Source of the DNA: Sialis fuliginosa | Taxonomy: Eukaryota; Arthropoda; Insecta; Megaloptera; Sialidae | Direction of reading: 5' to 3' | Assembly (NCBI GenBank): GCA_961205875.1 | Contig: OY540822.1 | Coordinates: 15,006,501-15,070,500 of the forward strand | DNA length: 64,000 nucleotides | In this document: positions 1-49,604 of the stretch, one piece after another | Layout of the letters: every line of letters begins with the position of its first letter | How positions within the stretch are numbered: the first letter of the stretch is position 1 | The notes under the pieces: model-generated | Databases searched by the model: none | What the model saw: only the letters and a program-made list of their open reading frames with translations | What the model was told of the DNA's origin: nothing | Position numbers and translations under genes: made by a program

Positions 1-2062
1 TTTAGTTCTTTTGAAGCTCTCACGATACCGTTAGCAATGGTAGCACAATTGACAATACCTCCAAATACATTAACTAATATAGATTTAACGTTTTTATCCG
101 TAGTTAAAATTTTAACAGCGTTGAAAACTTGTTCATCTTTTACACCACCACCGACGTCTAAGAAGTTGGCTGGTTGACCACCATGAAGTTTGATTATATC
201 CATCGTAGCCATCGCTAATCCAGCTCCATTCACGAGACACCTGGAAATATAAAAAATTAAGTTAGGTTTCATTTTCCAGTTAACGCAGTTTATCTTTGAC
301 TGTTATAATTCATAAAGGTTCATGAGAGTAATTTTTTAAAAACAATTTTACTATTTTATGATAAAGTTTTAAATACAACTTTCTAGAAAATCAGAAAAAG
401 CTAAAGAAATTCCATTAGCCAGGGAAATTGTCTGGCAATGCTAAATTCCTATTATTAAAAAAGAAAACGCGCAAAATTTTCAATTTCTATTGTTGAAAAA
501 TATTTAATCACGTGATTTATTTTAACCACGTTAACCAATCACAACAAATGTACCGCACTTCATGTTGTTCAATTTAATTGTTGAATATGTCAACAAATTT
601 GTAATAGTGGTGTTATTAATATATTTTTGTGATTTGTTATTGTGGGTAATACAATTATATCTTTTTTAAAAATATAAATACATAATTCATTTCACGAAAT
701 TTGATCTTAGTAATTTATTTTACCTTTTTGAAAATACCTGGTGAATTTGTAATTCAGTTCAATCTAAACGAAGTACATATATTTTTTATGCATGCAGAAA
801 TAACTTTTAAAAGAGAATTGTGAATTTCCTGTATAAATTTGATTTATTTTAGTTAAAGTGTTGTTCTTACCCAATATTTCCTTCTAGAGGTATGTAATTC
901 AAGTTCCATTTACTAGCTTCAATTTCTCTTGGATCTGACTCGGTTGTATCATGTAATTCATACAATGTTTTATGTCTAAATTTAGAATTATCATCAAAGG
1001 CGAGTTTGGCATCTACAGCTATTACGTTTCCTTCATCTGTTTCTACTAAAGGATTTATTTCAAGTTGTATACAGTCCATATTTGTAAACAATTCCCACAT
1101 TTTCTTAATTTGATCAGCAGTCTTTTTTTGTAAGGAACCATCGAATTTCAGGAATAAAGCTATGTCATTTGCTATTTTATCGGTAATTCCTGAAAAATAA
1201 ATAATAAATTTGACTGACTCATTATGTAAAAATGTTTTTTTTTTTACCTTCTAATATATCGATTGGGAATGTTTTTATAAGTTCAGGAGTTTCTTTGGCA
1301 ACTGTTTCTATATCTACTCCACCTGCTGGTGAAGCCACAATGACGGGTCCATTGTGCTCTCGATCCAACAAAATACACAAATAAGTTTCACGTTTAATAT
1401 TAACACTTTCTGCGACCATGACTTTGTTTACTGGAATGCCAATTTTAGGTGTTTGTTTTGTTATTAATCGATGACCAATCATGGCGCGAGTTATTTCGTC
1501 TACCTTCTTCGGACTGGAAAAAATATTTTCGGAAAGTGCATCTTAATTAAAATAAAATTTATTTATCATAAACTTACTCATTGGTAATATGAACACCTCC
1601 TTTAAATCCATTATCAAAATGTCCTTTACCCCGACCTCCAGCTAAAACTTGGGCCTTAATTACAAATTCCAAAGGCCCTAAAAAGAAAAGTGATTTTAGT
1701 TAATTCTGAATTAAAAGTTGTTTGTTATTACTATATATTTGTATGACTAAGTTTTGATATCACAGTTTTTAATAGAAAATCGAATACATACGGAACGACT
1801 GAAGACTCGCACTAATTTCTCGAGAGTTTTCTATTAAAACAAAGTCTTGTACGTTTATGGCATTATTTTTAAGTAAATTTTTACTTTGATACTCTAAAAG
1901 ATTTAAATTGCACGTAGCAATTTTAACTGCCTAAAACATAAAATAATAATATGTTAAATGTTGTCTATTTATTTTAAATTAAATAAATAAATATATTATA
2001 AAAAAAATGTTTACCTGTCTAAGTTTCCTTCTAATTAAACAATTATTTATTGTAGTCAGCAT
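1..2062 (-). CDS. SUCLG2: Succinyl-CoA ligase [GDP-forming-type] beta subunit, mitochondrial; 3' part outside window
   Basis: Six minus-strand exons join in phase: 2062-2015, 1930-1792, 1677-1578, 1513-1248, 1189-871 and 240-1, the last running off the window. All introns are GT-AG. The enzyme is the beta subunit of the TCA-cycle step succinyl-CoA + NDP + Pi to succinate + CoA + NTP in the mitochondrial matrix. Seen here: an ATG followed by a basic leader ([16 protein letters not shown]) as expected of a presequence; then NLLEYQSK, the glycine loop [18 protein letters not shown] of the ATP-grasp fold, [46 protein letters not shown] with DAKLAFDDN (metal/nucleotide region), [19 protein letters not shown] and the ligase-domain [14 protein letters not shown]. 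The segment [11 protein letters not shown] resembles the GTP-type paralogue rather than the ATP-type (IMRCDVIAQGI in human SUCLA2), which is why the GDP-forming name is chosen; actual nucleotide preference is inferred. The 5' end is complete; the C-terminal portion is missing only because the window ends. It is divergent from the endosulfine gene. Confidence 0.95.
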
Positions 2063-15640: not shown

Positions 15641-17136
15641 GTTATACTTATTACCAATTTTGATTTATATAGTAGGTATAATAAATTATATTATAGTCTT
15701 TCTGCATCAATTTAATTATTTGAAAGTTTAATGATTCGATTAGAATTTTGTATAATTGTTGACACATAGAAATATGTGTATGCATATAATAATTTAAATT
15801 TTTATGAATATTGATTTAGGCAAAGAGAATGCCACATTATTAATTGATTTAGACATTGATTAGAATTAAAAATAATAACAATTTTGAACTGCATATTAAT
15901 TTTGAACTGCATATTAATTTTGTTTTAGCTCGGTAATTGGCGGATAGGTTATAAAGTTGCGATATTATTTTCTACAAATTAATTATCAATGTATATAGGT
16001 ATATATTATATATATGTATATATAAATAGTATAAAAATGCTTATTAACTAAGTCCAGTCTAAATTTTGCTGTATTTTCTATTTTCTAATATGCAATTTGG
16101 TTCTAATTGTAAGATGAAAAGGGGTTTTAATTAGGGATTTAATATTTTTATATTTATATATGTATATATATTTAATATCAATACTGGTTCTTTTTAATTG
16201 ACTTTTGGATAATTTTGCTTATAATAAAATAACACATGTGTATCTAAGGTATATTGGAATTTAGACTTTATAATTACTGGTTACTACTGCTTAATAGGTT
16301 TGTATTGTATTATATATTATTCAGACAGAAATTCTATGATATAATAAGAGTTATTTTTTATACCTTGAGATACAGAGGGGCTATTCTTTTGAGCATATTT
16401 TGGTTAAAATATATTGAAAAATGATGGGTATAAAGCCAAATGTTGATATTTTTGCAACATATGATTACGTAAAATAGGAACACAATGAAGGTATATTTGT
16501 TAAAATAACTTATGCTAATATCCTTATACGATATATTTATATTCTAGTAAAACTATGTTACCTAGACCTTCAATTATTCATTGAATGTAAATCAAATTAA
16601 AATATTTCGTTGTTTAATCCATAGTCCATATACGGACATACGATTTCCGAAATTAATTTAAAAAAATCATAGACAACACCATGTAATAGTAATTTCATAT
16701 TACATTTAATTGAATTACATTATATTAAATTACAATACAATACATTAAGTTAGCGAAGATTTTTGATTTTGTTGAAAATTCAATAGAACTATTTTACATG
16801 GGGTCAGTCTATTATATGATAAAAAGAATTAAATAATTATATAATATATAAATAAACAAACATTTAATTGAATTTTTTTTTTGGTTAATAGGGTTATAAG
16901 GTTTTTCTGCATTGTATAGCATAAATATCACAGAAATAAGTGCTATATAATAATTATAATGTCAAACTATATAAATTATAAATTATATACTTAAGTAGTC
17001 TAGTATTTACAATAAATTAAAACAATTCATAGTTTGACATAAACTATTTATTTACAATATTATAACCCTCTTAATTAACTATTATTATATCTAGAAGAGT
17101 AACTAATTATGTAAATATATATAAACGTTTACTTAT
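15641..17136. other. Gene-free AT-rich stretch
   Basis: No gene seen. An 18-20 bp unit TTTTGAACTGCATATTAA is duplicated in tandem near 15883-15921. The rest is AT-rich low complexity with TATATG-type runs. Confidence 0.5.
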
Positions 17137-17626
17137 ACACAAGAAAAAAAATAACTTGGGCCAAGACAATCCTTGTTTTATATATCTATAAAGCCGTGTT
17201 TAGACAAAAAAAATTATAGTAGCTAACATTTCGGGCTGCTGTCCACGTTGTCGTATTTTTACACTTTAAAAGTTTTTAAGTGTAAAAATACGACAACGTG
17301 GACAACAGCCCGAAAAGTTAGCTACTATGGACAACGGCCACGAAAGCTTACAGAAGAAAAAAAAAATTACATTTTAAAGATTGAAATTTCTATTTTTCAG
17401 ATTTTTTTTGCAAATTGAAATGTTATTCAGTTATAGAATTAAAAAAGAATGTAAAAAATATGTAAATTTCAGTAGTTGACTTGATAAGTCAAATACCATA
17501 AAATTCAATTATAATCTTTTTTTTAAATTATTGGAGAACAATATTAAAATATTAAAAATAATTTACTGAATATATAACTATATAAAACAAGGATTTCTTA
17601 GTCCAAGTTACTTTTTTTCCTGTGTA
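17137..17626. mobile_element. Tc1/mariner-like MITE with a nested palindrome
   Basis: Element 17139-17624 (486 bp) has roughly 48-bp TIRs, CACAAGAAAAAAAATAACTT on the left and the complement of CACAGGAAAAAAAGTAACTT on the right, with TA on both sides, as expected of Tc1/mariner insertion. No ORF. A separate perfect-looking palindrome (17216-17328) occupies the left half. Confidence 0.8.
17216..17328. repeat. 113-bp palindrome nested in the MITE
   Basis: Arms beginning ATAGTAGCTAAC and containing TGTCCACGTTGTCGTATTTT meet around 17270 with a very small loop. Arms differ at only a few positions, so the palindrome is either young or kept by arm-to-arm conversion. Confidence 0.85.
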
Positions 17627-17805
17627 CCTAAACAAAATGCCATATTATTAAGCGGAGCAGAATTCACATAATATACATAAGATAAATAAGTTAATGTTAA
17701 TGAATTGTAGATCAACCTATAGGTAATATACACGAGTATTAATAGTAGGTACAAATTATATTATAATTATACAGTCTATGCTAAAATATGGGTATATATA
17801 GTATA

Positions 17806-18334
17806 TACAGTAAAAGCTATTTATTCGCGGGGTATATGTTCCATAAATATGCCGCGAATACAGAAACCGTGAATACGGAATGGTAATTTATATGGGATTA
17901 TAGGGGATACGTTCCTAGGTGACAAAATAAATAAACAAATACAATATAAAAAAATCAATTTAATTGAAGTTTTTGACCATATTGATTAATTATAATCTTC
18001 AGGCTTAGGCAATGGTTTAAAGAATTTTGTAATTTTTTCTTGCTTGGGAGTTCTTAAAAGCTCCTTCAATTCAGACTGATATTCAGCAGTGGCATTAGCA
18101 ATTTGCCTCTTAAAAATAAGACTTCGTTCCATAGATGGATCAATTTTCATAAAGAAATCACAAAGCTCATTTTCCATTCTTAAACCTTCATTAAGATTTT
18201 TCAAATTAGATTTTGATTAGATCCGCGAATAAAGAAATCTTTAGCCGCGAATATAGGAATTGGGTCGCATTTTTTTAATCCGCGAATAGTGAAAACGCGA
18301 ATGAAGGAAGCGCGAATAAGGAGCTTTTACTGTA
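17806..18334. mobile_element. Deleted pogo/Tigger-like transposon
   Basis: Element 17808-18332 starts CAGTAAAAGCTATTTATTCG and ends GCGAATAAGGAGCTTTTACTG (last G lost in neither copy), with TA on both sides. Subterminal CGCGAATA words recur near both ends. CAGT termini, TA duplication and the internal transposase relic fit the pogo/Tigger branch of Tc1/mariner. At 525 bp it is a deletion derivative. Confidence 0.8.
17986..18204 (-). pseudogene. Transposase C-terminal fragment (pogo/Tigger-like)
   Basis: A 72-codon open frame inside the TIR element encodes a charged helix-like segment ending with LLRTPKQEKITKFFKPLP. Tigger/pogo-family transposases often end in a lysine-rich tail of the form K-I-T-x-F-F. 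No DDE catalytic residues are present, so it is a leftover of the coding region, not a functional transposase. Confidence 0.55.
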
Positions 18335-18610
18335 TTTAAAAGAAGAAATACATTTAATTATACTAGTTTGTTAACTATTCGTACTATACGTCTAAAATGT
18401 ATAATACATACTATTTTTAAAATCACCGTATACTTGAGCATAATATATTTAAATTACAATTATTTTATAAAAAACATTTAATGTATATACAATAAATACA
18501 GTGTATTAAATTGATTAAGCCATACGAAATTTAACATATGGTAAATAAGAAGTATTCTAGTCACTTAAACTCAAATTATACACCTTAACCACAATAAAAC
18601 AATGTCACTC

Positions 18611-18647
18611 GACACGTGTTTCGACTTCACAAGAAGTCATCAGGAGC
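18611..18647 (-). ncRNA. Hammerhead-ribozyme-like motif, left arm
   Basis: Minus-strand order: CTC, CTGATGA, hairpin CTTC-TTGT-GAAG, TC, GAA, the palindrome ACACGTGT and C, then GAG. ACAC/GTGT would be a loopless 4-bp stem III with C as the cleavage-site base; CTC/GAG gives stem I. Such tiny stem III is known in retroelement hammerheads that work as dimers. The stem II junction has lost bases relative to the other arm, so activity is doubtful. Confidence 0.5.
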
Positions 18648-18680
18648 CTAACAGTTCTAACTGAGTCTCGAACTGTTAGG

Positions 18681-18723
18681 TTCCTGATGAGGACTTCTTG
18701 TCATGTCGAAACACGTGTCGAGT
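18681..18723 (+). ncRNA. Hammerhead-ribozyme-like motif, right arm
   Basis: Plus-strand order: CTGATGA (18684-18690), stem-loop region GGACTTCTTGTCATGTC, GAA (18708-18710), ACACGTGT (18711-18718), C at 18719 as predicted cleavage base, then GAGTG. The core is complete. Stem II is weakened because CAT replaces the GAA that pairs in the other arm. Ribozyme identity is inferred from the conserved core. Confidence 0.5.
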
Positions 18724-18764
18724 GACATTGTTTTATTGTGGTTAAGGTGTATAATTTTAGTTTA

Positions 18765-19613
18765 AGAGTCTTTATACCAATAAATCGATGATGATGATTT
18801 ATGTATTTTTAAATACCACATCGAAATAAACTGATCAATTTTAAATTAGTCAAAAGTGTGTTGTTTTTCAACTTCAATACCTTTCTAAAAATATTATTAT
18901 ACTTTAATCTAGATGTTTCATTTAATTCAGTTAATGTATTTCATTCTTTATTAAAGTTGAAAATAAAACACTATTGATTAATTTAAAATTTATCGGTTTG
19001 TTTCGTGGCGGTATTACAAAAACGTATATAAAGGTTACTAAAGTATTTCTAATTCACTCAATGTTAAATTTCCTATGGTTTAATCAACCTAAAATACACT
19101 GTATAAATGTTTTTACTATGATTTAAAACAATTAATTACCCCATGGCAGTCTATGTGTTTTTTAAGCAAGTTAAAATTAAACAGAAACTGTTATAGAATA
19201 ATTAAATGTTTTAAAACTACATTGAATGAAATCCATAGAACAGCAAAGGATAAACAAGGGGAAGAACATAACAGATCATAGACAAAAAACATAAACACTT
19301 ATACTCTATTTCATTTAAGAATGTAGTGGGAAACTATATTATTTAAGAATGCAGGGAAACTCTTAAACGATATAGAGTATACTAATATAAGTTAACAATA
19401 AAGACAATTCCACATAAGTACTCGTAGCTTATTGCACTTTGGTATTTCGAGTATGTGTTGTCTTAGAGTTTGGAAAACATAAAAAACAATACAAATATCA
19501 AAACCAAAAACAAACAACAACAACATAAAGCACATTGATACTGAATGAGTCTGACTAAAGTTGACATTATTTTATCAAAGTATCGAGTTTGTATCTGTAC
19601 TGTCATATTCACG
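18765..19613. other. Gene-free AT-rich stretch; 3' flank of the unrecognised membrane-protein gene
   Basis: No coding exon seen. A 3' UTR for the minus-strand gene should lie at its right end, but no clear polyadenylation hexamer was chosen. Confidence 0.4.
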
Positions 19614-19793
19614 TCACAAGTTCATAGAATCCACGTCTGACGTATCAACAGGCCACGATGTCGAATCTTCTGAAGCAGACGCAGTAGCGTCACTCAGAAG
19701 GGACGTTCTATCTGCTGTAAATGTGGGTAACGCGGACATGTTTACTGGTGTCCCGGTACCAGACATGGTTACCGGGGCATGCGCTGTGGGTCA
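19614..19793 (-). other. Putative stop-codon readthrough extension
   Basis: After the TGA at 19793-19791 the same frame stays open for 58 codons to a second TGA (19616-19614). The extension is Ser/Thr/Ala-rich with an acidic end (for example TADRTSLLSDATASASEDST and VDTSDVDSMNL), is much less AT-rich than neighbouring non-coding DNA, and begins right after the stop with no intron. TGA followed by C is the leakiest stop context, and readthrough is well documented in insects. Alternatives: an allele or assembly error turning a sense codon into TGA, or an ordinary 3' UTR open by chance. Confidence 0.5.
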
Positions 19794-21028
19794 GGCCACT
19801 GGCATCACATGATGTTGAACTTCTTCCGGTTCCGGTGACCAACAATTGTCAGATAACCAACAACCGATCACCACTGTTACGAAACCGATAGCCAATGCTA
19901 ACATGATGTAAACTTCTGCATTTCCTATATAGATTAAACAACATTTAACAATCAAAATTACACACTTATTGTTAGTTTCTACTCTCTACTCTACAGAATA
20001 AAACAATTGAGTTATTCATAATAATATAACGATTACACTAACAATAAGTCTGTTCGATTTACATGCTTATATAGTTTGACCACTACCGCTCCAGGGTTGA
20101 ATAAATAAAATAATGCGTGCAATTTACCTAGTTGTTTTCTTATACCTAATGGGGTTTTGCTTTTCCATAGCGCATTGAACAGTGTTGGATCTCCGCGTTT
20201 CCACTCCCGGTATCCTGATCTTGTTCTACGAACTCCACCGACACCGCCTAGGCTACCTCCAGTTGATGCGCTTTTTGCCCCAGTGCCTGCCGCAGCTACT
20301 CCTGGGAGTTGGGATCCACCACTTCCAGGTCCGGGCGTCATCGGTGATGCGCCCGCTTGCGGTTGCGTCGGACTCGGGATATTCTCTTGAGATTGTGGAG
20401 ATGGAAAACCAGTCACTAAATATCACAAGTTTTAATTAATTATAAATCTACTCTCATTCTTTACCACTAATTACAGTAGACTAATAAAAATATTCCCTGT
20501 TTCAAAATTGTGTTTTATAGTTCTAAAGTACTATGTCGCAAAACATTTATTAATCTAGTATAATTTGTAGTGTTACGTGTTTTTAATTATAATTATAAAT
20601 CTGAGATTTGACACAATTATCAGTGGTTCCCAAAGTGTGGAGTCATGGCGTCTTTATAGGGGCTCCACGGATCTGCAGGCTCATCCATCCTATTAATTTA
20701 ATGTTAATGAATAAATAATAAATGAACGAATTTGTTCAGTAACAACAACACTTACCAATATTATCAAATGAAAACTGATGTTTTAAGGAATTGCATATTA
20801 TAAGCACTTAGATATTTTTTTCAAAATTAGTATGAAAAATACATTAAAACTGTAACTTTGCTAAATGTTTGAATTCTACGTGTACTATATATTTATGATA
20901 TTATAAGATTCATAGTTACACCACTGATCCGGACATACGTATACGTAATAGACAATTTCATGCAAGCGAGGCATACCCATGAGTACGATGACTGATAATA
21001 TGACAGTGGCCGACACAAGCCAGCCCAT
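19791..21028 (-). CDS. Unrecognised small membrane protein, three coding exons
   Basis: Exons 21028-20977, 20415-20128 and 19924-19791 have GT-AG introns and join in phase to 157 aa. I do not recognise the family. The start chosen is ATGGGCTGG, with G at -3 and +4. Residues about 3-17 (WLVSATVILSVIVLM) are a signal peptide or anchor. Residues about 18-80 are Pro/Gly/Ser/Ala-rich and probably disordered, then comes a basic, more conserved-looking part (SGYREWKRGDPTLFNALWKS). A second hydrophobic segment (VYIMLALAIGFVTVVIGCW) is followed by a short tail with two cysteines, SPEPEEV and a TGA stop. GC content is far above the surroundings, a coding signature here. Two in-frame TGAs frame the ORF: the stop, and one 9 bases upstream of the start. 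Exon 1 begins at an acceptor (21168), so further 5' exons must exist beyond 21.2 kb. Confidence 0.75.
20628..20760. mobile_element. hAT-like repeat fragment inside intron 1
   Basis: Starts ATCAGTGGTTCCCAAAGTGT, a hAT-type outer end, and continues with TTAATTTAATGTTAATGAAT and CGAATTTGTTCAG. Related to the repeat at 37.51-37.90 kb, where the same internal part follows GTAGTGGCTCCCAAAC. Only one end is clear. Confidence 0.55.
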
Positions 21029-21168
21029 TCCGTGGCGTCACCAAGCGCGGACGCACTCTCGGCTCGGCACCATTGTAGATCCCAGAGACGGCTGTAAGAA
21101 CTCGTCAGGTGCCAAAGATGGTAGGGGAGGAGGTGATTCGGACACCCTTCTTGCCAGAGTGTATTTAT
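21029..21168 (-). other. Exon 1 upstream part: open in frame, interrupted by TGA
   Basis: From the acceptor at 21168 (TTTGTTTCAG just upstream) this segment is in frame with the downstream ATG and open except for TGA at 21040-21038. It reads like protein (LARRVSESPPPLPSLAPDEF, then QPSLGSTMVPSRECVRAW before the stop). It contains an ATG at 21073 giving a 11-residue uORF (MVPSRECVRAW). Either it is 5' UTR with a uORF, or coding sequence joined to the membrane segment by readthrough or in an allele with a sense codon here. Confidence 0.45.
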
Positions 21169-21184
21169 CTGAAACAAAGAAAAA

Positions 21185-22062
21185 ACATGTTAGACTTACA
21201 TATTTTGTCATATTTAACTTATTTATATCATTAAAAAATGTTGGGGAGCTCTGGTTTAGATATATCGTCTCAAACGTGTTTTAGGGGTCATTCTTAAAAA
21301 TACATCACATTTTTTTCAACCCCCCATGAACGAAGAAAATTATGTAGGTATTTTAAACGTCTCGTCACGTTTGTGTGGACCCCCTCTCCCCTTCTCTTTA
21401 CATATCATCACGCTAGGCAATTGCCCCCACTTCCCTCTTTTTACTTACGTTAGTATGACACGTGAAACAATTATTTATTAATTTAATTTCGGCACAGATT
21501 TTAATTATACTAACATAAGTACAATTATATTTCGTCATTCCACATTTACGTGTGTTTTCAATTACCACGAATTTCCAAGCCACGTTTGCATCTTAACGTA
21601 CCCGATCGGCTTTCAACATATAAAATAACTATAGCTGTGCTCGCAGGTTCGTTCGCGTGGACTACGGAATTATGATTTAAGATTTATTCTACACAATTTT
21701 TTATTACATTATATTGTTCAATATTCAACGGTTTAGGCAGCGTATAACAAAACATATACTAAAATCCATGAATTAAAAAAAAGTGGTTCTCGAGTAATAA
21801 ACGCACTCACGGACAGACAGACAGAAAGGATGCGACCTTTTTGAGTTTCGGCTCTATTTAATTTTTATTATTTTGTGTTGAATCTATATTAGAATTTATC
21901 AAATGCCTATATTATTCAAGTCCTCTAATGTACATCTACATATAAATACACGTAAATTATTCAAAGTTTAAAGTTCCTGGGATGACATTGACATTTTCAG
22001 AGTATTTCAAGGAGTATATATTATGTATAGTTGGGGTTCTTTTGTATAATAAGTTAAAGGTA
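21185..22062. other. Upstream flank/intron of the membrane-protein gene; no exon assigned
   Basis: Moderately C-rich patches at 21360-21440 and 21590-21670 contain no convincing spliced frame. The short tandem run ACAGACAGACAG lies near 21810. Confidence 0.4.
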
Positions 22063-46500: not shown

Positions 46501-49020
46501 TTTTTTATTATTTATATTTGAGAGGAATTCATATAAATAGAAAAATAAATAAACGATAAGGGGCACTAATACTATTCGTATTTTATTTTAATTAGGTTTT
46601 AAATATCAACAGTGTCACATTTACATCAAAGTAATAAAATTACTAATGATAATGTAATCAAACAAAAAGGCAATATCGCAATCAAGTAAACAATCAAGTA
46701 AACATCGATTGTACACAAATCGAGGTTTGACAATAGCCTCGTACGTGCAGTGTTACCAATTGAAGTTGTTTCACGTGTTACATACGTTCTTTGACACGTG
46801 ATAGCTTTGTGTTGTGCCAGCAATGTTTTGGCGTTCATAAACTGGTTGCTTTATAGACTGTCAAAAAGGCTTCTCACTCTATTGATTCACTTATAGAACA
46901 CGCTCTCTATTTGTATTTACTGGTTCATCGTGTAACGACATGCTGCAAACATGTTTAAACGCTTCTAATTAGTTTGTTCGAATAACATTTGACCCAATGA
47001 AAACCTTTGATATTATATTAAATTTCCTATGTTCGTTCATGTATTATTCACCATACAAAAAATACTAGTGGCAATTTTGCTGCATTATAATAACGTATAA
47101 AAGTACGTGCATTCTATTTTATTAGGTTGGCTATATGTACCTATCAAAATTACCTTAACTTTTCATGCATTCGAGCTCCCGAGGTTATCCGCTAGTAACG
47201 CTGGGAAAGATTTAGTTTTATGTTTGTTATCATGTCATGAATGACTAATGGATTTTCAGTACTCCAAACGGCTTATTATTGTTTCAGATGGCCGGTTATT
47301 TTATTGAAAAAATCACACATTGTGCGAAATTCCAATTTGTTAAAATCTGTACATGACAGTTGCTTTATAAAAAATCAAAAACATCATAGAAATAATCGCT
47401 GTCAAAGAACTGCATTACTATTATATCACTCTATACGATCTCTTTGATTCATCAAATTTAAATTAACGCGAGCTTGATGTACTTTACAATTTACTTTTCA
47501 GGTGTTAATGTATTGGACAGCTTTCTATGTGCATTGTTCATGTCTAGAATTATGATTGAAAAAATATTACATTGAAAAATGAAAAAAAAGAAATATTTTT
47601 TTACCGAACTAATTACTTTCGAACAAATTTCCCGATACCTACGTACGTTTAAACATGTTAATCTGTCTGTTATGTTTTTTTTATTTTGTAGATATTAATT
47701 ATTTGTAAAACGTTTGTGTGTAAACTTCAACGGTATCTTTTGAAGCGATTATTAAATTACGTATAAAATCTATGGCAGGTGTTCGTATAGACATGATATT
47801 TTATAGACAGTTTGCTTTTCCAGTTATAATCTAGTTATTTTTAGAAATAAAAAAGATAAACTAATGACGATGTGGTATAAGCTCCGATAACACCAGATAT
47901 CTGTTGTTGAGGTATTAAATAGTTAAACAATATATTGACTCATTTGTTTTTCTTAGATTTTATCCAGCGTATTATTTCAATTTAAATCATTCAATACTTC
48001 ATTTAATTTCTAACTAATAAATACATATATATACAATCGATGTAAATTTTATAATTATCATTCCTCAAGAAATATAAATTCAAGAAAATTTGTGTATATT
48101 TTTGAATTGAATTTATTGTTTTTCGCATAATTAATTAATACTTAAATGATACAAATGAATTTTTTTTGTTTCATTAGATACATTGTTTCAAAAATCGCAA
48201 ATTTAACATAAAAAATAAAAATAAGTATCCGTAGAATTCTTGAAGAAGAAAAGTATTTTTTATTTCGCAACTGTAAGCATTTATTTGTTAAATATCATAA
48301 TTAGATATGTTAAAAATAACTTAATAATGCGTTGTTTATTAAAATTTTTATATAAAATTGACTTCGTCTTGTCAGAATTTAACACACTCTCGTGTCGGCC
48401 TCAAGAGAATCTAAATTTGTTTTTTACTTTACAACTTCTTGTACTAAATAAAAGAAATCATAAAAAAGCTTTAATGATGCTTTAAGAGTACTCAGTCTAA
48501 TGTAGTTAAGAAACAATTTAATATCATAAATTGCACACAATTAAAAAGATGTCGTTGAGAATTACGCTGTATTCATTTTATTCATAATTTGCAAATTTAA
48601 ACTGATTGCAAGGATGAAATATAAGTTTTAAAACAACCGTTGAATTTTTATCAGTAAGAATATATAACATCAGTGGTTTCCAAATAAGACATTCATATTT
48701 TTAACCGCTTATATTATAAAGTTGAATTTCAGTCAACATATTCTTTTATTAAAATAAAAATACGCAATTTTTCTGATAGAGATAAAAAACTGTTCAAAAG
48801 TATATATAAATATTATTCAATTGTCTAAATTATACAAATATTCAAAATAGTAAAAACAACACGGGCGAAGCCGCTAGCGTTTGATTTTTTCATGTATCAA
48901 ACATCATTGGTGACATTCCAGCATTCATCCAAATTACTTCGAGTGTGTTGTATTCTGGAATCGATGAATGAAATTTGTTTTTTCACCTCACTCTATATGC
49001 GAGTGTATTTTTGGGGGAAT
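43600..49020. other. AT-rich stretch, no gene seen
   Basis: Contains the repeat relative at 44530-44715 (see 28.86 kb), an RTE-like fragment near 45.36-45.50 kb, the palindrome CTTATACGTATTACGTATAAG near 45570, a partial GGTACCAG-family copy at 46065-46170, and the RTE-like start GGGCGAAGCCGCTAGCG at 48864. Open frames at 46626-46838, 47241-47447 and 48240-48485 have no domain or splice support. Confidence 0.4.
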
Positions 49021-49240
49021 CCCCGCCGAATTTGCGTTATGAAGTTCCAGGCGTTACGCAAATGATTTGAGCAATATACCGCGTGGCCGGCACATACCGT
49101 CGCCATGGAGACGACCTGCAGGTGCAGGACGTGTTACCCCCACCCTCAATTACTCCTCGTTCGCCCCTACCGTCCCGCGATTACCCACAACCGCGGATCG
49201 TTCACATTTGTTGCGTGTTTGAACGTGTTATGCCAATTAT
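49020..49240. promoter_or_regulatory. GC-rich island with an X-box-like palindrome
   Basis: The least AT-rich non-coding patch in the right half, with several CpGs. GTCGCCATGGAGAC at 49099-49112 is close to the RFX-factor X-box (GTTGCCATGGMAAC type). On the minus strand an ATG (CCATGGCGACG) is followed by GTATGTGCC, a possible donor. It may be a promoter or first exon. Inference only. Confidence 0.25.
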
Positions 49241-49604
49241 ATCCGCGAGTTTCTATTGTATTTTATTTATTTTTCAGATAAATATCACGTAGATTTTATT
49301 TTAATTTTACCTATGATGTACATCCATACTTAAACTTGGAAATTTATAATGAGGTAAAAAGTTTTATTTTTCCCAGTTAACGCATAACTAGTATATCTTC
49401 TTTTTTATAAAATTTTTTATCAAAAAAAAGTTATATACCTATTCATAAAGTAATGTCATTAAAATTAGATATAAAGAAAGAAAAAAATTAGTTTTTTATG
49501 TTCAAAAACTCCATTTTTTTAGTCTTATGAAATACTAGCTGTTAGGTAATACAGATTTCTGTTATGATAGTCGATAAAACAGATCGCGCGTACAAATATC
49601 ACAC

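What the first reader, a model, noticed from the sequence alone, without database searches (positions are those of the whole stretch)
19614..19793. Candidate UGA readthrough in an unrecognised membrane-protein gene
The three-exon ORF ends at TGA, yet the same frame continues for 58 sense codons of Ser/Thr-rich, acidic-ended, non-AT-rich sequence to another TGA. In DNA this AT-rich an open frame of that length with such composition is unexpected for a 3' UTR. The context TGA-C is leaky.
Basis: partly seen in the sequence, partly recalled or inferred. Interest (0 to 1): 0.72.

Follow-up and report, generated by a model that had tools for sequence, protein, structure and literature searches.

The report
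Possible leaky stop in membrane gene
A gene for a small, uncharacterised membrane protein in what is probably an arthropod ends at a stop signal of a leaky kind, and the DNA just after it still looks like protein code up to the next stop, so the cell may sometimes make a longer version; this is a known phenomenon in insects and is unproven here.

Summary
On the minus strand a three-exon ORF (157 codons, two hydrophobic segments) ends at TGA-C (19793-19791). The frame then stays open for exactly 58 codons to a second TGA (19616-19614). The extension is 52% GC in a window of 22-36% GC, and GC falls near the second stop, not the first. Its base periodicity fits coding in frame 0: 0 of 207 sampled stop-free frames elsewhere in the window and 9 of 1323 stop-free shuffles score as high. 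Against this, one antisense frame scores higher, which is often a shadow of Ser/Thr-rich code, and a codon-usage model does not favour frame 0. A 10-bp hairpin begins 14 nt after the stop (8 of 400 shuffles as stable).
Best reading: the extension is, or was until recently, translated, most likely by UGA-C readthrough of the kind abundant in insects. Not excluded: a recent nonsense or assembly allele, a splice bypass, an antisense exon, chance. Selenocysteine is unlikely: tRNA-Sec is present, but no SECIS reached E 10 near the gene. No orthologue could be fetched, so the decisive conservation test was not run. If true, it is a new member of a known kind.

The parts
21029..21170 (-). Presumed 5' UTR part of the first coding exon, after an inferred acceptor (TTTCTTTGTTTCAG); contains an in-frame 11-codon uORF
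   Evidence: frame-0 periodicity score of 21169-21041 is -2.21
21038..21073 (-). uORF MVPSRECVRAW-TGA-C, start context ACAATGG, in frame with the main ORF and ending 9 nt before its ATG
20977..21028 (-). Coding exon 1: first hydrophobic segment (signal peptide or anchor), residues 1-17 plus one base
   Evidence: Kyte-Doolittle peak 2.29
20128..20415 (-). Coding exon 2: Pro/Gly/Ser-rich then basic region
19794..19924 (-). Coding exon 3 up to the first stop: second hydrophobic segment and short acidic tail
   Evidence: Kyte-Doolittle peak 2.37
19791..19793 (-). First in-frame stop, TGA followed by CCC
19617..19790 (-). 58-codon open extension: 20 Ser/Thr, 7 Asp/Glu, 1 Lys/Arg, no hydrophobic segment
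19752..19776 (-). Predicted hairpin of 10 bp (one bulged A, 4-nt loop), starting 14 nt after the stop; possible readthrough stimulator
19614..19616 (-). Second in-frame stop, TGA
18947..18952 (-). First AATAAA downstream of the second stop (an ATTAAA lies at 19084); neither motif lies inside the extension
   Evidence: 18000-20000 scanned

Best explanation
A single-copy gene of a probable arthropod encodes a 157-residue protein with two hydrophobic segments. Its UGA-C stop is read through by a fraction of ribosomes, with a near-cognate tRNA placing a standard amino acid at the UGA, possibly helped by a hairpin 14 nt downstream. This adds a 59-residue Ser/Thr-rich, acidic, presumably disordered tail beyond the second membrane segment. 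Shown: the open frame, the coding-like composition ending near the second stop, the TGA-C context, the hairpin prediction. Inferred: translation of the extension, readthrough as the route, the hairpin's role, and any function of the tail.
For: In a scan of 19924-19300 the best single GC change point lies at 19631, with 19610 almost as good (support interval 19576-19651), enclosing the second TGA (19616-19614) and not the first. Frame-0 periodicity score is 1.19 (1.25 with another training set). None of 207 stop-free 58-codon frames sampled at 21-base steps elsewhere in the window reaches it, 7 of 3000 stop-free mono-shuffles do, and 9 of 1323 stop-free dinucleotide shuffles do. In the same gene exon 3 before the stop scores 0.64 and the GC-rich, stop-free 5' exon part -2.21. 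The stop is TGA with C at +4. The best local hairpin in the 80 nt after the stop is as stable in 8 of 400 dinucleotide shuffles. No AATAAA or ATTAAA lies in the extension, no SECIS match at E<=10, no second copy was found in the genome. bantam is present; that this family marks protostomes such as arthropods is recalled. Readthrough is abundant in most insects tested (PMC5100048 section 17), and Drosophila extensions tend to be disordered and low-complexity (PMC4999894 passages).
Against: No comparative or expression evidence. A codon-usage model trained on kinases and P450s gives frame 0 of the extension -11.5 and an antisense frame +0.1; in the periodicity classifier that antisense frame also wins, 2.72 against 1.19. 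The classifier is imperfect: frame 0 wins for 120 of 170 held-out coding chunks; it misses exon 2 of this very gene (-1.89) and ranks the joined pre-stop CDS below that same antisense frame (-0.89 against 0.27); and it gives the stretch after the second stop -0.91, which is inside the range of real coding chunks (lower quartile -1.02) although that frame closes after 12 codons. Whole-region folding is not unusual (z -0.36 to -1.16). The hairpin is shorter than the 35-nt minimum used in a Drosophila screen. In fly ribosome profiling only 25% of readthrough events were at UGA (PMC3840789 passage).
Confidence: 0.45

Rival explanations
1. The TGA is a recent nonsense mutation, a segregating allele or an assembly error. 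The ancestral or normal protein simply runs on to the second TGA, and the extension has not had time to decay.
For: An intact coding-like extension next to a stop is exactly what a very young stop leaves behind; Jungreis et al. excluded stops found only in close relatives for this reason (PMC5100048 section 5 part 1). The rest of the gene model is intact, and no second copy was found to compare with.
Against: Two features would be coincidences: TGA with C at +4, and a stable hairpin 14 nt downstream. No direct evidence either way, as reads and relatives are out of reach.
Confidence: 0.17
2. Alternative splicing bypasses the TGA. Exon 2 joins an acceptor inside the extension, giving an isoform without the second membrane segment whose C-terminus is the extension.
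For: Donor 2 leaves one base of a codon, and 7 of 9 AG sites between the two stops have the matching phase; those before 19714 (CACATTTACAG) and 19669 (GTCTGCTTCAG) have fair pyrimidine content, 0.69 each.
Against: The inner acceptors would leave the first part of the extension unexplained, although the GC tract and the open frame cover all of it. The acceptor nearest the stop (before 19783) has 0.56 pyrimidines against 0.50-0.75 for the three inferred sites of the gene, so this measure does not separate them.
Confidence: 0.13
3. The tract is an ordinary 3' UTR or GC-rich exon stretch that is open by chance, and the gene ends at the first TGA.
For: With the extension's own dinucleotide composition 6.6% of shuffles (1323 of 20000) are open for 58 codons. 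A GC-rich exon stretch that is presumably not coding exists in this gene: the 5' part of exon 1 is 56% GC and also open for 43 codons. The codon-usage model does not favour frame 0.
Against: Frame-0 periodicity (0 of 207; 9 of 1323) and the GC drop near the second stop.
Confidence: 0.15
4. The tract is an exon of a plus-strand gene: the antisense frame 19555-19809 (85 codons) is the coding one.
For: It is open and scores higher than the minus frame in both models (0.1 against -11.5; 2.72 against 1.19).
Against: No Pfam match up to E 0.01. The GC tract is continuous with minus-strand exon 3 and ends near the minus-strand second stop. In known coding chunks with at least 35% NCN codons the same antisense frame beats the true one in 4 of 6, and in 15 of 149 overall, so a shadow is expected for Ser/Thr/Ala/Pro-rich code; it also beats frame 0 over this gene's own pre-stop CDS.
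Confidence: 0.07
5. Selenocysteine insertion at the UGA.
For: The genome has a tRNA-Sec gene with anticodon TCA (74.2 bits, over the cut-off), so the machinery may exist.
Against: No SECIS-family match up to E 10 in 17000-21300, either strand. No homologue with a Cys at this place is known here.
Confidence: 0.02

Closest known systems
Conserved programmed stop codon readthrough in Drosophila and Anopheles (Jungreis et al. 2016, PMC5100048; abstract, section 17, part 1 of 2 of section 5, and passages seen)
   Same: TGA stop, C at +4, coding-like second ORF followed by a frame that closes soon, probable arthropod host
   Different: Theirs rest on multi-species codon conservation; here only one genome is available and the gene has no recognised orthologue
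dfr/heca-type stem-loop-aided readthrough in Drosophila (PMC13170385; passages and section 22 seen)
   Same: A hairpin begins within the first tens of bases after the stop
   Different: 25-nt hairpin against a 35-nt minimum in that screen; no conservation or reporter data; dfr uses UAG
Drosophila bi and C. elegans C18B2.6 TGA-C contexts tested in yeast (PMC3609751; passages seen)
   Same: TGA-C context
   Different: bi also carries the Skuzeski hexamer after the stop; here the stop is followed by CCCACA. C18B2.6 gave borderline readthrough, 2.9%, in yeast
Selenoproteins of insects (PMC2500217; passages seen)
   Same: In-frame UGA; tRNA-Sec in the genome
   Different: No SECIS found

Membership tests
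Pancrustacean functional stop codon readthrough | Codon-level (PhyloCSF-type) conservation of the second ORF across species | not testable with these tools
   No orthologue confirmed in viral contigs or genome contigs; no relatives of the window's genome are held
Pancrustacean functional stop codon readthrough | Single-genome coding potential of the second ORF in frame 0 | tested here: inconclusive
   Periodicity in frame 0 exceeds shuffles and the window null, but an antisense frame scores higher and the codon-usage model does not favour frame 0
Pancrustacean functional stop codon readthrough | TGA first stop with C at +4 | tested here: met
   TGAC at 19793-19790
[quoted passage not shown]
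   The frame closes after 12 codons and GC falls to 28-30%. Reservation: the periodicity score of that stretch, -0.91, is not low by itself (lower quartile of coding chunks -1.02)
Pancrustacean functional stop codon readthrough | Same first stop codon conserved in relatives (not a recent nonsense mutation) | not testable with these tools
   No relatives or reads
Pancrustacean functional stop codon readthrough | No better explanation by splicing, downstream start, opposite strand or SECIS | tested here: inconclusive
   No SECIS match; phase-matching acceptors and an open antisense frame exist
Stem-loop-aided readthrough (dfr type) | Stem-loop of at least 35 nt, loop 3-10 nt, bulges at most 2 nt, within 60-80 nt of the stop | tested here: not met
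   Hairpin is 25 nt, 10 bp, 4-nt loop, one bulged base; it is stable for its composition (8 of 400 shuffles as stable)
Selenoprotein | SECIS element in the 3' UTR | tested here: not met
   No SECIS match at E<=10 in 17000-21300; dedicated SECIS predictors not run
Selenoprotein | tRNA-Sec in the genome | tested here: met
   74.2 bits, anticodon TCA
Any membrane-protein family in Pfam or with a solved structure | Pfam or PDB sequence match of the first ORF | tested here: not met
   Only DUF3040 below its cut-off (16.6 of 24.7 bits, E 0.0096); no PDB match up to E 1

The most novel reading that the evidence does not exclude
Both in-frame UGA-C codons of this mRNA are leaky: the uORF stop at 21040-21038, nine bases before the main ATG and in the same frame, and the main stop at 19793-19791. 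One message would then give up to four forms of a membrane protein, differing at the N-terminal signal segment and at the acidic C-terminal tail.
Probability: 0.03. Interest if true: 0.55.

Novelty: new member of a known kind. Interest (0 to 1): 0.28.

Why it matters
If true, this gene joins the hundreds of insect genes thought to use a leaky stop to make a second protein form, here a membrane protein with an optional acidic Ser/Thr-rich tail in a gene that Pfam does not recognise. It also shows how far one AT-rich genome can go: where coding sequence is much richer in GC than its surroundings, the place where GC falls (near the second stop, not the first) is a usable single-genome sign. It does not change the picture of readthrough in general.

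Tried and rejected
Tried without result: Pfam and PDB for the first ORF and Pfam for the extension; relatives in viral contigs (17 pattern matches, none confirmed) and genome contigs (329, none confirmed); paralogues in the own genome (only this locus); Rfam at gathering threshold over the window (none). Literature: searches, of which the one for readthrough in Hemiptera listed 9 papers, seen as a listing only. By title none describes readthrough of a nuclear gene in that order; PMC10471768, on the evolution of termination codons, might touch it and was not opened. I make no claim that this gene is absent from print.

Considered and set aside: that the upstream GC-rich stretch 21041-21169 is coding and the TGA at 21040-21038 an internal codon of a longer protein. 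The frame is open for 43 codons and has the best codon-usage score of the six there (-7.6), but its periodicity score is -2.21, no upstream exon was recognised by eye in eight GC-rich stretches translated, and a start codon with a good context and a hydrophobic segment follow at once. Selenocysteine: no SECIS match. A repeat-derived extension: one place in the genome matches.

The codon-usage model was replaced as main test by a composition-centred periodicity classifier, because the first is dominated by the amino-acid make-up of kinases and P450s; its results, which go against frame 0, are reported. Training: 60 family loci (L010-L069) gave 51 segments of at least 60 codons after splitting at stops; 5 transcription-factor stretches were added, 56 segments in all.

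Full report
WHAT IS THERE. The window lies in a 392-Mb genome of 20 contigs that carries bantam (85.9 bits, over the cut-off). From that, and from general knowledge of where bantam occurs, the host is most likely an insect or another arthropod; the species was not identified. On the minus strand the three coding exons 21028-20977, 20415-20128 and 19924-19791 join in frame across GT-AG introns and give 157 residues: a hydrophobic segment at the N-terminus, a 92-residue Pro/Gly/Ser-rich and then basic stretch (11 Lys+Arg, 3 Asp+Glu), a second hydrophobic segment, and a short acidic tail. The topology is open: a cleaved signal peptide would put the tail in the cytosol, the positive-inside rule would put it outside (inference). 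No Pfam family passes its cut-off and nothing in the PDB matches up to E 1. No second copy was found in the genome.

THE OBSERVATION. The ORF ends at TGA (19793-19791), followed by CCC. The same frame has exactly 58 sense codons and ends at TGA 19616-19614. Of 9439 stop codons in the window that are followed by another stop, 120 have 58 or more open codons after them; 8 of the 9439 also reach 48% GC. Of those 8, one is this extension, two are minus-strand frames over exon 2, two are antisense to exon 2 and three overlap one GC-rich island near 49.1 kb. The extension's own composition makes an opening of this length a 6.6% event (1323 of 20000 dinucleotide shuffles), so openness alone is weak.

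IS IT CODING? For: the single best GC change point in 19924-19300 falls at 19631, with 19610 almost as good; the 2-ln-unit support interval 19576-19651 contains the second stop and not the first. A logistic classifier on position-specific base composition, centred so that GC content itself carries no weight, was trained on coding stretches of this genome (56 segments, 170 chunks of 58 codons). It puts frame 0 on top of six for 120 of 170 held-out chunks. It gives the extension 1.19 in frame 0; none of 207 stop-free frames sampled elsewhere in the window (21-base steps, both strands, 1-1600 and the gene region left out) and 7 of 3000 stop-free mono-shuffles reach that. With another training set (149 chunks, frame 0 on top in 105) the score is 1.25, and 9 of 1323 stop-free dinucleotide shuffles reach it. 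In the same gene exon 3 before the stop scores 0.64 and the GC-rich 5' part of exon 1 -2.21.

Against: one antisense frame of the extension scores 2.72 in the same classifier, and a codon-usage model trained on 51 kinase and P450 segments gives frame 0 -11.5 and that antisense frame 0.1. In real coding chunks that antisense frame outscores the true one in 15 of 149, and in 4 of the 6 chunks with at least 35% NCN codons; the extension has 53%. It also outscores frame 0 over this gene's own joined pre-stop CDS (0.27 against -0.89). A shadow is therefore expected, but a plus-strand exon is not ruled out. The classifier misses exon 2 (-1.89), and it gives the stretch after the second stop -0.91, which is within the range of real coding chunks (lower quartile -1.02) although that frame has two stops after 12 codons. 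I put the chance that the minus-strand extension is, or was until recently, coding at roughly 0.75 (judgement).

HOW WOULD IT BE TRANSLATED? The stop is TGA with C at +4, the leakiest of three contexts compared in yeast (PMC3609751, passages); the bases after it are CCC, not the CUAG motif (PMC5100048 passage). A hairpin of 10 bp with one bulged A and a 4-nt loop spans 19776-19752, 14 nt after the stop (-14.6 kcal/mol). The best local hairpin in the 80 nt after the stop is matched by 8 of 400 dinucleotide shuffles and 0 of 100 mono-shuffles, and it is stronger than the best in each of five other 80-nt stretches of the gene. Folding of the whole region is ordinary (z -0.36 to -1.16), and the hairpin is shorter than the 35-nt minimum of a Drosophila screen (PMC13170385 section 22). 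Simple readthrough is thus the most economical route. Most insects tested, with T. castaneum and A. mellifera as exceptions, show abundant readthrough (PMC5100048 section 17), candidates prefer TGA (section 5 part 1), although in fly ribosome profiling only 25% of events were at UGA (PMC3840789 passage). Fly extensions tend to be disordered and low-complexity (PMC4999894 passages), like this one by composition (20 Ser/Thr of 58, no hydrophobic segment).

RIVALS. A recent nonsense allele or assembly error would leave the same picture and cannot be told apart without reads or relatives. Splice bypass is possible: 7 of 9 AG sites between the two stops match the phase of donor 2. The genome has tRNA-Sec, so selenocysteine had to be considered, but no SECIS match appears at E up to 10 in 17000-21300. 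Chance openness and a plus-strand exon remain at lower weight.

VERDICT. Observation confirmed; interpretation plausible and best of the options, at about 0.45; decisive test not available here. If true it is an ordinary new member of a well-described class.

Noticed in passing
window 21038-21073, minus strand: An 11-codon uORF (MVPSRECVRAW, start context ACAATGG) lies in the same frame as the main ORF, ends 9 nt before its ATG, and also ends in TGA-C.
   Followed up: partly
window 17802-18338: Element with 28-nt terminal inverted repeats (89% complementary) around a 76-codon minus-strand open frame; looks like a short Tigger/pogo-type relic (label recalled, no Pfam match to the frame).
   Followed up: partly
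window 18559-18771: Fold-back repeat: 84-nt arms, 93% complementary, 45 nt apart, in the presumed 3' region of the gene.
   Followed up: no
window 3-1542, minus strand: Exons of a succinate-CoA ligase beta-type gene (Ligase_CoA and ATP-grasp_2 over their cut-offs; gene name recalled).
   Followed up: no
window 48937-49291: GC-rich island (up to 60% in 150-base windows) with several overlapping open frames; possibly a promoter region (guess).
   Followed up: no
own genome C3:23371793-23371878: tRNA-Sec gene with anticodon TCA, so this animal may still make selenoproteins, which some insects have lost (PMC2500217).
   Followed up: partly
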